Of a stretch of DNA of 64,000 nt, positions 24,652-52,727 are shown piece by piece; the first letter of the stretch is position 1; each line of letters opens with the position of its first letter. The position numbers and the translations under genes were made by a program. The stretch is from Halorarum salinum (GTDB taxonomy: Archaea; Halobacteriota; Halobacteria; Halobacteriales; Haloferacaceae): NCBI RefSeq assembly GCF_013402875.1, contig NZ_CP058579.1, positions 496,001 through 560,000 of the forward strand, given 5' to 3'. The notes under the pieces were generated by a model. It was not told the DNA's origin. It saw nothing but the letters and a program-made list of their open reading frames with translations, and ran no database searches.

Positions 24652-24907
24652 AACCGCTCTGCGCGTGCCGGCCAGCCTCCGATCACGCGAGCGAGGGTGA
24701 TCTCACGGGACCGAAGGTTCCGGGTAGTGCTCGCCGGACGCACGCGAGGGACGAGCACCACGGCGCGGGAGCGAAGCGAGCGAGCCGAGGAGCACAGAGC
24801 GTGCCGCGCGAGTCGACAGCCGCGGGGGCTTTCTGGAGTTCCTCCGCGACGACCGAACCCACCTCCCGGACGACGGCAGCGAGGCCTTGGAACGGCGAAA
24901 TCAGAAC
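24652..24907. other. Intergenic region with a partial dispersed repeat
   Basis: These 256 bases between convergent-side ends hold no gene. The stretch 24753 to 24835 matches the core of the hairpin repeat family seen at 37621 and 52478. The rest is ordinary GC-rich sequence. Confidence 0.5.
24753..24835 (+). repeat. Partial copy of the GC-rich dispersed hairpin repeat
   Basis: The order of blocks is GAGCACC, then GGGAGCGAAGCGAGCGAG, then GAGGAGCACAGAGCG, then CAGCCGCGGGGGCTTT. This follows the same block order as the copies at 37 and 52 kb (AAGCACCGCAGGAGCGA, GACGAGGAGCGCAG, ACCGCGGGGGCTT). The first arm of the hairpin is missing. It may be an old, decayed copy or a regulatory RNA remnant. 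Confidence 0.45.
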
Positions 24908-35566: not shown

Positions 35567-35640
35567 GTCCGGGTTGGGGTAGTGGACTATCCTTCAGCCT
35601 TGTGGAGGCTGAGACGCGGGTTCAATTCTCGCACCTGGAC
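35567..35640 (+). tRNA. tRNA-His (GTG anticodon)
   Basis: A cloverleaf can be drawn by eye. The acceptor stem pairs TCCGGGT (35568 to 35574) with ACCTGGA (35633 to 35639). The extra G at 35567 pairs with C at 35640, the G-1:C73 pair specific to tRNA-His. The anticodon stem is CAGCC/GGCTG around loop TTGTGGA (35600 to 35606), so the anticodon GTG is at 35602 to 35604. The T-arm has GCGGG and CTCGC around TTCAATT. There is no intron and no encoded CCA. An AT-rich box at 35531 to 35540 is a likely promoter. Confidence 0.93.
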
Positions 35641-36968: not shown

Positions 36969-37373
36969 ATGGTGGATTCGGAGCCAGCGGCCGAGGGGTC
37001 CGAGGTCGAACCGGTCGTGAAGCGCGCCGGGGACGTGGAGTACGCCGACGTCGGCGCGGCCGACGGGATGTCGCGGGGCGTGTTCCTCGACGAGTCGGAC
37101 GGCGCGCCGAACTTCGCGCTCCGGCGGTTCGTGCTCGACCCCGGAGCGTCGGTCCCCGAGCACACGAACGAGGTGGAACACGAACAGTACGTGCTGTCCG
37201 GAGAGTACACCGTGGGAATCGGCGAGGAGGAGTACACGGTCTCGGCGGGGGACGCGCTGCTGATCCCGGCCGGCGTCGTTCACTGGTACGGGAACGACTC
37301 CGAGGAGGAGGGGTCGTTCGTCTGCGTCGTGCCGAACGGCGACGACGCGATCGAACTGGTGGATTCCGCCTAG
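36969..37373 (+). CDS. Cupin-domain protein
   Basis: A 134-residue protein with one cupin barrel. Motif 1 is HTNEVEHEQYVLSGEYTVGIG (residues about 59 to 80; His and Glu metal ligands), and motif 2 is GDALLIPAGVVHWYGND. These small proteins bind metal and act as enzymes or sensors; the ligand cannot be told. An acidic start (MVDSEPAAEGSEVEP) precedes the barrel. The gene is divergent from the site-2 protease and is followed by the structured repeat. Confidence 0.85.
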   Translation: MVDSEPAAEGSEVEPVVKRAGDVEYADVGAADGMSRGVFLDESDGAPNFALRRFVLDPGASVPEHTNEVEHEQYVLSGEYTVGIGEEEYTVSAGDALLIPAGVVHWYGNDSEEEGSFVCVVPNGDDAIELVDSA

Positions 37374-37418
37374 GTTCCCGGTAGCGGTGACGAAGTGACC
37401 TCGAAAGCGCCCGGCCCG

Positions 37419-37753
37419 TTTCGGTCCCACCCTGCCGGATGGTCCGACCAGCGTCGTGTCTGCTTCCCCGCCCCTCCCCGGCGGGCGCGGCTCCCGGCGC
37501 CTCCGGCGCCGCTCGCGGTGCGCCCGCCGCATCCCCCCGACCATCGACCAGCAAACGTCACGTCCGACTACCCACGGCATGCACGTTCGGTAGTCGGACC
37601 CGCGTCGCTCGGCCGAATTTCGGCAGGGTGGGACTGAAAGGGGCCGCGGCTCTCGGCGAACCGCGGGCCCTCAAGCACCGCAGGAGTGAGGGCGAAGCCC
37701 GAACGACGAGGAGCGCAGAGCGGTCCGCGGAAGCCGAGAGCCGCGGCCCCTTT
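37419..37753. repeat. Structured GC-rich repeat with three inverted pairs
   Basis: Three inverted pairs occur in a gene-free 485-base gap. The pair 37419-37437 and 37621-37639 match in 18 of 19 positions and frame the left part. The pair 37562-37572 and 37589-37599 are perfect 11-base arms around 16 bases. The pair 37637-37657 and 37733-37753 are perfect 21-base arms around 75 bases. The right part (from 37621) shares its block order with copies at 24753 and, inverted, 52478. It is unlike any IS element here: I see no transposase. It may fold as RNA or as cruciform DNA. Confidence 0.7.
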
Positions 37754-37858
37754 CGAGCCGTTCCGACCAGTCCCGAAGACATTACGAAATCCATCAACGA
37801 CCCACGAGCAGAAGCCGAACGCCTGAAATAACACACCCGCCTACGAACCCCCAACGAC

Positions 37859-39895
37859 GTGTCCGAACAACTCCCGCAGGTCGAGACGCTGTTCCTCCAC
37901 CAGCAGGGCGACGAGTTCGCCGTCGCCGTCCGCCGGGGCGGCGAGCGGCGGCTCCGCGGCGTCCTCGAACTGAAGGAGACCGACGCGGGTCCCCGCCCCC
38001 GCCGGTTCCGGGTCAAGCGCGGCTCCGACGAGGAGCCCCGACAGCCCGACCAGTTCGTCGACCTCGCCAGGGCGGCCGAGCGCATCCGCATCTCCGAGCA
38101 GACCGCCCGGAGCGCGCGAAAGCGGCTCGACGAGATGCTCGACGCCTACCAGCTGGAGGCCGTGCAGGTGCGCACCTGCCGGTACTGCGCGAACGACGGG
38201 CGCTACTCGCCGATCACCGAGGAGACGGCGGTGAAGGCCGACCGCGACTTCATCTGCCGGGACTGCGCGACGCGGGAACTCGAGCGCGAGCTCTCCTACA
38301 AGGGCCAGTTCACCGGCGCCGCGCAGGACCGGCTGGAGGAACTCCTGCTCGAGGTCGGCGACCTCGACCGCATCACGAACCTGCTCCAGGGGAACCTCGA
38401 CCCCGACCTCACGAAGTTCGACACCATCTCCGCGACCGTCGACGAGATCGACCCGGTCAGGACGGACGAGCTGACCCTCCACCCCGCGCTCCAGGACCGC
38501 ACCGAGGACCGCTTCGAGGAGCTCCTCCCGGTCCAGAGCCTCTCCGTGCGCAACGGCCTGTTCGACGGCGACGACCAGCTCGTCGTGAGCGCGACGGCGA
38601 CGGGCAAGACCCTGGTCGGCGAACTCGCCGGCGTCAACAACGCCCTGAACGGGAACGGGAAGATGCTCTTCCTGGTCCCCCTCGTCGCGCTCGCGAACCA
38701 GAAGCACGAGGACTTCGAGGACCGCTACGGCGACGTGCTCGACGTGACGATCCGCGTCGGCGCCTCCCGCATCAACGACGACGGGAACCGGTTCGACCCG
38801 GACGCCGACGTCATCGTCGGCACCTACGAGGGCATCGACCACGCGCTCCGGACGGGCAAGGACATGGGCGAGGTCGGCACCGTGGTCATCGACGAGGTCC
38901 ACACCCTCAAGGAGGAGGGCCGGGGCCACCGCCTCGACGGGATGATCAGCCGCCTGAAACACTACACCGAGCGGCGGAACTCGCCGGCCCAGTGGGTGTA
39001 CCTCTCGGCGACCGTCGGCAACCCCGCGTGGCTCGCCGAGAACCTCGGCGCGACCCTGATCGAGTTCGAGGAGCGCCCGGTGCCCATCGAGCGCCACGTC
39101 ACCTTCGCCGACTCGCGCGAGAAGCTTCGCCTCGAGAACGACCTCGTGAAGCGCGCGTTCGACGGCAAGTCCTCCAAGGGCTACCGCGGGCAGACGATCG
39201 TCTTCACCAACTCCCGCCGCCGGTGTCACGAGATCTCCCGGAAGCTCGAGTACTCCTCGGCCCCCTACCACGCCGGCCTGGACTACAAGCGCCGCAAGAC
39301 GGTCGAGCGCAAGTTCGGGAACCAGGACCTCGCCGCAGTCGTCACGACCGCCGCGCTCGCCGCCGGGGTCGACTTCCCGGCCTCGCAGGTGATCTTCGAC
39401 ACGCTGGCGATGGGCATCGAGTGGCTCTCCGTCCAGGAGTTCGAGCAGATGCTCGGCCGCGCGGGCCGGCCGGACTACCACGACGAGGGCAAGGTCTACG
39501 CGCTCGTCGAACCCGACGCGGTCTACCACAACTCGATGGAGATGACCGAGGACGAGGTGGCGTTCAAGCTGCTGAAGGGCGAGATGGAGGACGTCCGGAC
39601 GGTGTACGACGAGTCGAGCGCCGCCGAGGAGACGCTGGCGAACGTCGTCGTCGCCGGCAAGCGCGCGAAGGCGCTGAACGACCGGATGCTCGGCGACGTG
39701 CCGACGACCCACGCGGTCGGCAGGCTGCTGGAGTGGGAGTTCATCGACGGCCTCTCGCCGACGCCGCTCGGCCGGGCAGTCACCCGGCACTTCCTCGCGC
39801 CCGACGACGCGTTCCGCATCCTCGACGGCATCCGGCGGGGCGCGACCGCGTACGACGTCGTCGCGGACATGGAACTGGCCGACCAGGAGCTGTAG
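37859..39895 (+). CDS. DEAD/DEAH-box superfamily II helicase
   Basis: A 678-residue helicase. The Walker A motif is VVSATATGKTLVGEL near residues 240 to 250, and the DEVH box is VVIDEVHTL near 345. SATVGNP is motif III and QMLGRAGRPDY is motif VI. The N-terminal domain (about 1 to 200) has a zinc ribbon, CRYCANDG and CRDCATREL. The layout resembles the archaeal Ski2/Hel308-related helicases. The start is GTG at 37859, with an AAATAAC box about 27 to 36 bases upstream. The gene is isolated, though the C-terminal domain expected from related helicases may be the separate gene at 34952. DNA or RNA as substrate is not settled. Confidence 0.9.
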   Translation: MSEQLPQVETLFLHQQGDEFAVAVRRGGERRLRGVLELKETDAGPRPRRFRVKRGSDEEPRQPDQFVDLARAAERIRISEQTARSARKRLDEMLDAYQLEAVQVRTCRYCANDGRYSPITEETAVKADRDFICRDCATRELERELSYKGQFTGAAQDRLEELLLEVGDLDRITNLLQGNLDPDLTKFDTISATVDEIDPVRTDELTLHPALQDRTEDRFEELLPVQSLSVRNGLFDGDDQLVVSATATGKTLVGELAGVNNALNGNGKMLFLVPLVALANQKHEDFEDRYGDVLDVTIRVGASRINDDGNRFDPDADVIVGTYEGIDHALRTGKDMGEVGTVVIDEVHTLKEEGRGHRLDGMISRLKHYTERRNSPAQWVYLSATVGNPAWLAENLGATLIEFEERPVPIERHVTFADSREKLRLENDLVKRAFDGKSSKGYRGQTIVFTNSRRRCHEISRKLEYSSAPYHAGLDYKRRKTVERKFGNQDLAAVVTTAALAAGVDFPASQVIFDTLAMGIEWLSVQEFEQMLGRAGRPDYHDEGKVYALVEPDAVYHNSMEMTEDEVAFKLLKGEMEDVRTVYDESSAAEETLANVVVAGKRAKALNDRMLGDVPTTHAVGRLLEWEFIDGLSPTPLGRAVTRHFLAPDDAFRILDGIRRGATAYDVVADMELADQEL

Positions 39896-52377: not shown

Positions 52378-52727
52378 GGTTGGTACGTGGGCGGTGAGTC
52401 GCTTGAATCTACGGGCGATTCTGACTGTTCGTGACCGTTGGGTGTTCGGTGATCGTTTCGAGTATCGGAGCGACGACCGCGGAAGCCCCCGCGGTTCTCG
52501 GCTCGGTGCGGCCGCTGCGCTCCTCGTCGCTCACTGCGTTCGCTCCTGCGGTGCTTGTCGGTCCGCGCCTTCCCCGAGAACCGCGGCCCCTTCCAGTCCC
52601 GCCCGTCGGCTGGACGGTCCGTCGTCACTCCCGGGGGTTCGGACACGTCGCGGAGGGAATCCGGCCGTGCGGGTCCAGTCGGCCGGTTGGGTCGTCGCGG
52701 TGGAAGGGAGAGGTCCGGGAACCGACG
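52378..52727. other. Intergenic region with a repeat copy
   Basis: These 350 bases separate the HIT start from the glycosylase stop. They include the repeat at 52478 to 52604. I find no gene; apparent frames here come from the repeat. The rest is GC-rich. Confidence 0.5.
52478..52604 (-). repeat. Copy of the GC-rich dispersed hairpin repeat
   Basis: Read on the minus strand, the block order matches the right part of the copy at 37621: GGGACTGGAAGGGGCCGCGG, then AAGCACCGCAGGAGCGAA, then GACGAGGAGCGCAG, then AACCGCGGGGGCTT. Perfect 13-base arms lie at 52489-52501 and 52574-52586. This copy lacks the 21-base arms of copy A and has a somewhat different loop. It is therefore a diverged member of one family. 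Confidence 0.6.

What the first reader, a model, noticed from the sequence alone, without database searches (positions are those of the whole stretch)
37374..37858. Gene-free structured element with three inverted pairs
In 485 bases there are a 19-base pair (18 matches), a perfect 11-base pair and a perfect 21-base pair. The layout of left arm, central hairpin and right long stem is complex. It could be an RNA with strong folds, a cruciform, or an insertion element without a transposase (MITE-like).
Basis: seen in the sequence. Interest (0 to 1): 0.5.

Follow-up and report, generated by a model that had tools for sequence, protein, structure and literature searches.

The report
Modular hairpin repeat of haloarchaea
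The gene-free stretch is one copy of a modular, hairpin-forming DNA repeat that is scattered between genes in many salt-loving archaea, and whose hairpin core comes, goes and is swapped while its edges stay in place.

Summary
The three inverted pairs are real and beyond chance (longest perfect pair 22 bp; 500 shuffles reach at most 14). The stretch is one copy of a dispersed, modular repeat family in a haloarchaeal genome. The element (about 37399-37764) holds module A between two divergent 'hub' motifs (GGGYGGGACTGAAAGGGG) and, on the right, a ~120-nt hairpin, module B. The hub occurs 97 times in this genome, in 200 of 392 genomes of the order and in none of 241 sampled genomes of the phylum outside it. 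In 144 copies of B the 12-bp stem is 87% Watson-Crick paired, against 19-22% when slid by one base. Between three species of the genus the edges stay at several loci while B is absent, replaced or shortened; at the window's locus the relatives hold only stubs. No Y1 transposase was found in these three genomes, and tnpB in this genome is one broken gene. Best reading: a non-autonomous, hairpin-dependent intergenic repeat, similar in kind to Haloquadratum SMR/PATE and pneumococcal BOX, filed under neither. An RNA role stays open.

The parts
37399..37408 (.). Left outer end CCTCGAAAGC; left side of the frame, without a B hairpin
   Evidence: Shared with the G001 ortholog (TGACCTCGAAAGC); the left hub was scored empty
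37415..37432 (-). Left hub, GGGTGGGACCGAAACGGG on the minus strand
37412..37646 (-). Module A, multi-helix core bounded by two divergent hubs; sequence-conserved in three species of the genus
37479..37529 (.). GC-rich hairpin inside A (arms 37479-37488 / 37520-37529)
37562..37599 (.). GTCCGACTACC / GGTAGTCGGAC hairpin inside A
   Evidence: columns 162-168 / 185-191, nearly invariant
37626..37643 (+). Right hub, GGGTGGGACTGAAAGGGG
37636..37754 (+). Module B: long hairpin, arms 37636-37657 / 37733-37754. In this copy the usual GGGG/GGGG internal loop is fully paired (CCCCTTTC end)
   Evidence: the family stem covaries
37673..37683 (+). Conserved B core motif AAGCACCGCAG
   Evidence: Present in copies from many genera
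37708..37718 (+). Conserved B core motif GAGGAGCGCAG
37750..37764 (+). Right outer end CTTTCGAGCCGTTCC
   Evidence: TCGAGTCGTTCC at the same place in G001
36969..37373 (+). Upstream neighbour, cupin-domain protein
37859..39895 (+). Downstream neighbour, DEAD-box helicase; used to find the orthologous locus in G001 and G002

Best explanation
The stretch is one copy of a non-autonomous, hairpin-dependent intergenic DNA repeat family of haloarchaea. Shown: the family has a fixed frame (the hub on one side, a GGGGCTTYCG end on the other). Between them lies a hairpin core whose stem stays complementary although its sequence differs from copy to copy. At a given locus the frame persists between species, while the core can be absent, shortened or different. 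Module A is a genus-level segment between two divergent hubs and is found at the same locus in two or three species at several loci. Inferred: the hub strand folds as a hairpin in DNA, and an unidentified recombinase or the replication and repair machinery acts on it. Cores are lost by deletion between short repeats in the two arms (CCGCGG or CCGG), and gained by insertion or conversion from other copies. The stems stay paired because only perfect hairpins propagate, because one arm is used to repair the other, or both. The window copy is an A+B form whose relatives at the same locus are stubs. Any effect on neighbouring transcripts is secondary and untested.
For: Copies and frame: 59 blastn matches; 97 hubs with 0 in the reversed control; of 101 hubs (up to 3 mismatches), 57 were scored with a forward core, 7 with an inverted core, 27 as empty, 3 as unclear and 7 without an end motif. 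Stem: 144 distinct copies, 1503 of 1728 cells Watson-Crick, 383 and 330 when slid by one; 1574 cells paired including G-U against a shuffle mean of 1052 and maximum of 1130; 124 of 144 stems have at least 10 of 12 pairs and there are 99 distinct 5' arms. GRAAG/CTTYC next to the stem is A:T in 108 and G:C in 23 of 144 copies. Turnover at fixed loci: clean absence of the core in G002 against G000 (SET4); different cores in all three species between the same hub and end; A kept at the same place in two or three species while B differs (SET1-SET4); stubs at the window locus. Position: 90 of 101 hubs lie outside predicted genes. No Y1 transposase in G000-G002.
Against: No new insertion with a target duplication was seen, and no enzyme is linked to the family. 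The different cores at one locus could in part be rapid in-place evolution. Strand asymmetry in the stem is weak (G-U 40 to A-C 23, p = 0.043 with copies treated as independent). The window copy has a fully paired CCCC end, so it is absent from the 144-copy set. Gene calls rest on amino-acid composition only.
Confidence: 0.6

Rival explanations
1. A family of structured non-coding RNAs. The hub strand is transcribed, and the conserved loops (hub, AAGCACCGCAG, GAGGAGCGCAG) bind a protein or another RNA.
For: Covarying stem with conserved loops across many genera; strong folding; G-U exceeds A-C on the hub strand.
Against: The G-U excess is weak. Copies take all orientations relative to genes (24 convergent, 36 co-directional, 14 divergent of 74). 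Cores are missing at many hubs. No Rfam family matches. Exact hub number runs from 0 to 72 between genomes.
Confidence: 0.2
2. A classical MITE moved by a DDE transposase that recognises its terminal repeats.
For: Terminal inverted repeats (hub pairs and CCTCGAAAGC/CTTTCGAG ends), small size, many copies.
Against: No transposase-like gene was recognised by eye between neighbouring hubs. No target duplication was identified. Copies diverge strongly (69-97% identity to the window copy, the highest only over 30-60 nt) and several sit at old orthologous loci.
Confidence: 0.1
3. Structural or regulatory DNA hairpins (nucleoid, supercoiling, 3'-end processing), kept by selection and spread by duplication and gene conversion only.
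For: Intergenic placement, stable loci for A.
Against: High and patchy copy number; no clear orientation bias; clean core absence between species.
Confidence: 0.1

Closest known systems
Small mobile repeats, type A (SMR-A), and PATEs of Haloquadratum walsbyi (PMC3119063, passages read)
   Same: Haloarchaeal, transposase-free, about 110 bp with terminal inverted repeats, tens of copies, inserted into palindromes; different repeats or flipped repeats at one position ('SwitchRepeats') and terminal-only stubs after core deletion
   Different: Here the copies diverge strongly (commonly over 95% identical in SMRs), the stems covary, a hub motif is shared by half of the sampled genomes of the order, extra modules A and C exist, and no intact IS605 machinery was found in this genome. 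The HqIRS sequences themselves were not compared.
BOX elements of Streptococcus pneumoniae (PMC3049150, passages read)
   Same: Modular intergenic repeats with conserved stem-loops; a central module may be absent or multiple
   Different: Reported with TIRs and target duplications and a related IS; here no duplication or related IS was found. Unrelated lineage; sequences not compared.
REP/BIME and REPIN elements with RAYT transposases (PMC3733652, passages read; PMC3116915, search listing only)
   Same: Tagged imperfect palindromes, single or in inverted pairs, between genes
   Different: No GTAG or CGTC tag; no Y1 transposase in the three genomes of the genus
ERIC/IRU repeats of enterobacteria (recalled; ERIC was only a search term)
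   Same: A ~127-bp imperfect palindrome between genes
   Different: Other domain of life; modular here

Membership tests
REP/REPIN with RAYT | Y1 tyrosine transposase (PF01797) in the same genome | tested here: not met
   0 matches in G000, G001 and G002, against 32 of 60 searched genomes with one
REP/REPIN with RAYT | GTAG or CGTC tag at the foot of the hairpin | tested here: not met
   The foot is GGGYGGGACTGAAAGGGG
MITE | Terminal inverted repeats | tested here: met
MITE | Target-site duplication | tested here: inconclusive
   At the clean site (SET4) the only repeated word is CCGCGG (TCGCGG/CCGCGG in the filled copy), which is palindromic and part of the stem
MITE | Partner transposon with the same ends | tested here: inconclusive
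   No transposase recognised by eye between hubs 0.9-5 kb apart; not every hub neighbourhood was checked
SMR-A (Haloquadratum) | About 110 bp with prominent inverted terminal repeats | tested here: met
   B from hub to end is most often 115-133 nt with a 12-bp stem
SMR-A (Haloquadratum) | High identity within a type (commonly over 95%) | tested here: not met
   Copies of the B half over 80 nt or more are 73-86% identical to the window copy
SMR-A (Haloquadratum) | Inserted into near-terminal palindromes of PATE or IS605 elements | tested here: inconclusive
   The core sits in a palindromic frame; this genome has one broken tnpB and no Y1 tnpA, with no hub or end motif near that tnpB
PATE / IS605-derived | Palindromes related to IS605-type ends | not tested
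   No IS605 end sequences were compared
BOX-like modular repeat | Modules present in variable combination | tested here: met
   A, B and C modules around one hub; 27 of 101 hubs scored as empty of B
BOX-like modular repeat | Transcribed with structural effect | not testable with these tools
   No transcript data
Structured RNA (Rfam) | Match to a known family | tested here: not met
Structured RNA (any) | Covarying helix | tested here: met
   Module B; module A nearly none
Structured RNA (any) | Discrete transcript | not testable with these tools
   No RNA-seq

The most novel reading that the evidence does not exclude
The hub with its matching end is an order-wide docking frame for interchangeable hairpin cassettes. 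An unknown haloarchaeal enzyme, not a Y1 or intact TnpB system in this genome, puts cassettes in, takes them out and swaps them at the same place. The divergent hub pairs (starts 35-50 nt apart in several other genomes, about 200 nt with module A here) would be the basic unit of a previously undescribed class of hairpin-driven mobile DNA.
Probability: 0.25. Interest if true: 0.75.

Novelty: new variant of a known kind. Interest (0 to 1): 0.5.

Why it matters
A hairpin repeat whose hub is present in half of the sampled haloarchaeal genomes, with up to 72 exact hubs per genome, shapes intergenic DNA across a whole order, yet its motif words were found in no held open-access haloarchaeal paper. 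Its stable frame and variable core make an open question testable: what mobilises transposase-free repeats in haloarchaea, which the Haloquadratum authors called enigmatic. The elements may also serve as inversion endpoints.

Tried and rejected
Rfam at gathering score and at E <= 10: nothing relevant. A CRISPR link was considered because the hub's TGGGAYTGAAA resembles the 3' end of haloarchaeal CRISPR repeats (recalled); I set it aside because no array was seen and the hub is dispersed. Viral origin: 0 exact hubs in viral contigs and no phage match; plasmids 4 records, with no annotated feature under the best match of each. Autonomous partner: ordinary-looking genes lie between neighbouring hubs. 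G-quadruplex formation by the hub G-runs was considered but not tested. A cis-regulatory leader was set aside because orientations are mixed. A pooled query of flanking genes for 12 loci was printed but never searched; two longer stretches were searched instead. The 'A-like' count is too loose and is not used.

Rows dropped: 2 of 17 A modules were left out of alignment A1 for length or divergence. The window's own B copy is not in the 144-copy set. About five of the 27 'empty' calls (1124236, 1163034, 3510125, 3815267, 3873204) look like other hairpins or chance end matches on reading. One search scored only 12 candidates per genome, so its counts are lower bounds.

Full report
OBSERVATION. 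The three inverted pairs are present as described, and the longest, a perfect 22-bp pair, exceeds every one of 500 dinucleotide shuffles (maximum 14) and every other 485-bp tile of the window (next best 13). The stretch folds far better than shuffles on both strands (z -6.2 and -4.1). No frame tested through it matches Pfam (four frames). It lies between a cupin gene and a DEAD-box helicase gene. Rfam finds nothing here.

IT IS A FAMILY. blastn of the 485 bases against the window's own genome (4.26 Mb, two contigs) gives 59 matches, some over most of the composite and many over the right half only. Reading the copies shows a shared 18-nt word, the hub GGGYGGGACTGAAAGGGG: 97 places at one mismatch or less, 0 in the reversed control. 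In the window it occurs twice, divergently, at 37415-37432 (minus) and 37626-37643 (plus); 16 such divergent pairs up to about 320 nt apart appear among 101 hubs (counted by eye).

MODULES. Between the two hubs of the window lies module A (~235 nt with hubs). It recurs in three species of the genus and is conserved mainly as sequence: RNAalifold predicts 58 pairs, of which only 5 have a change on both sides, and the covariation term is +0.46 kcal/mol (15 of 17 modules found were aligned). Downstream of most hubs lies module B, a hairpin most often 115-133 nt from hub to end, with two conserved core motifs (AAGCACCGCAG, GAGGAGCGCAG) and the end GGGGCTTYCG. Upstream of many other hubs lies a third module, C, with GGGAYGAG-like and GGGGAGG motifs (44 of 101 hubs carry both; that pattern also admits the A variant). 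Read on the left-hub strand, A shares the GGGATG ... stem ... GGGGAGGCGTGGGG layout with C; this is read from the sequences and was not tested statistically.

COVARIATION OF B. To avoid circular alignment I anchored the stem only on the flanking conserved words. In 144 distinct copies (67 from this genome, 77 from others), 1503 of 1728 cells are Watson-Crick at the right register and 383 or 330 when slid by one base. Counting G-U as well, 1574 cells pair, against a shuffle mean of 1052 and maximum of 1130. 124 of 144 stems have at least 10 of 12 pairs, with 99 distinct 5' arms; the excess holds within this genome and among the others apart. Next to the stem, GRAAG pairs with CTTYC: A:T in 108 copies, G:C in 23, rarely mixed. 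G-U cells exceed A-C cells on the hub strand only weakly (40 to 23, p = 0.043, copies treated as independent), so strand and molecule (RNA or DNA) are not settled. In the window copy the usual G-rich internal loop is fully paired (end CCCCTTTC), which makes its 22-bp perfect arm and keeps it out of the 144-copy set. One other copy of this genome, 1499465, shows the same end.

TURNOVER AT FIXED LOCI. At one locus (G000 C1:3628277) the hub and the GGGGRCTTCC end are kept in three species, but the cores between them are different. At SET4 the core is present in G000 and cleanly absent in G002, leaving GGAAGGGG-CCGCGG-GGGCTTCCG. At SET1 the right core is in G000 only and a left core in G002 only. 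Module A itself is at the same place in G000, G001 and G002 (SET1, SET2) or in G000 and G002 (SET3, SET4); one search also points to shared loci for SET5 and L014. The SET2 and SET5 alignments are ragged, so I lean on SET1, SET3 and SET4. At the window's own locus G001 holds only TGACCTCGAAAGC-CTCCGCGGCTC-TCGAGTCGTTCC and G002 a different stub. This fits loss of the whole core between CCGCGG words of the two ends, but the direction is inferred. Of 101 hubs in this genome, 57 were scored as filled forward, 7 inverted, 27 empty, 3 unclear and 7 without an end motif (about five of the empties are doubtful on reading). The end motif occurs 93 times at one mismatch or less, some of them far from any hub, as expected for stubs. 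At another locus the gene block between two elements is inverted in G002, while G001 has a gene and no element there.

DISTRIBUTION. Exact hubs occur in 27 of 60 relatives, in 200 of 392 genomes of the order and 63 of 95 genera, with up to 72 copies, and in 0 of the 241 genomes of the phylum outside the order. Named carriers include Haloferax, Halobaculum, Haloglomus and Halomicrococcus. None in viral contigs or phages; 4 plasmid records, with no annotated feature under the best match of each. Hub pairs with starts 35-50 nt apart are common in some genomes (places listed).

PLACEMENT AND MOVER. 90 of 101 hubs lie outside predicted acidic-protein genes; of 74 with genes on both sides, 24 are convergent, 36 co-directional and 14 divergent. 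Between hubs 0.9-5 kb apart lie ordinary-looking genes. PF01797 (Y1 transposase) is absent from G000, G001 and G002, although 32 of 60 searched genomes have it. PF07282 (TnpB) gives one broken gene in G000, without hub or end motif nearby. So neither RAYT nor, in this genome, an intact IS605 system seems to drive the family now.

MECHANISM. Most likely this is non-autonomous DNA that depends on hairpin formation. The hub and the end are the stable frame; the core is a hairpin that is gained, lost, flipped or swapped. Stem pairing is kept by use of the hairpin, by arm-to-arm repair, or both. Shown: family, frame, covariation, differences at fixed loci, distribution, missing Y1. Inferred: the DNA rather than RNA level, the route of gain, the direction of change, the enzyme.

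KNOWN RELATIVES. The nearest kind in print is the SMR-A and PATE group of Haloquadratum walsbyi: about 110 bp, inverted repeats, no target duplication, insertion into palindromes, switch of repeats at one place, terminal-only stubs, mobilisation 'enigmatic' (PMC3119063, passages). The pneumococcal BOX is the nearest modular analogue (PMC3049150, passages). REP/RAYT membership fails on the transposase and on the tag (PMC3733652, passages). Searches of the held papers for the motif words found no haloarchaeal paper: one search gave one unrelated paper, none. Term searches brought up the Haloquadratum paper, but no listed title described this repeat. Subscription papers and ISfinder were not searched.

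Noticed in passing
window 52489-52604: A second module B copy (hub at 52587-52604, minus strand; G000:C1:548489-548604) of the GGAAG/CTTCC type.
   Followed up: partly
window 24819-24834: A solitary end motif GCCGCGGGGGCTTTCT, possibly a stub of the same family.
   Followed up: no
L076 1500-4090 against G002:C1:2608264-2610371: The gene block between two elements is inverted in G002 relative to G000; the breakpoints lie at the elements.
   Followed up: partly
filled cores in L072, L078, L091 and others: Smaller hairpins are nested inside module B cores (for example CACGGGCGC...GCGCCCGTG and GAGACGCC...GGCGTCTC), like hairpins within hairpins.
   Followed up: no
upstream of many hubs, e.g. L033, L034, L122: Module C (GGCGCGCGG hairpin, GAGGGAYGAG..., GGCTGGGGAGG...) is a further structured module, present in several genera and sometimes in divergent pairs.
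   Followed up: partly
L104 (G042), just upstream of the hub: Tandem repeat of the kind GCGAAGGTGGCCGGCACATCCGGTGA directly upstream of a hub in another family of the order.
   Followed up: no
hub motif, window 37626-37643: TGGGAYTGAAA resembles the 3' end of haloarchaeal CRISPR repeats (recalled); probably coincidence.
   Followed up: no
window 35568-35640: tRNA gene, plus strand.
   Followed up: no
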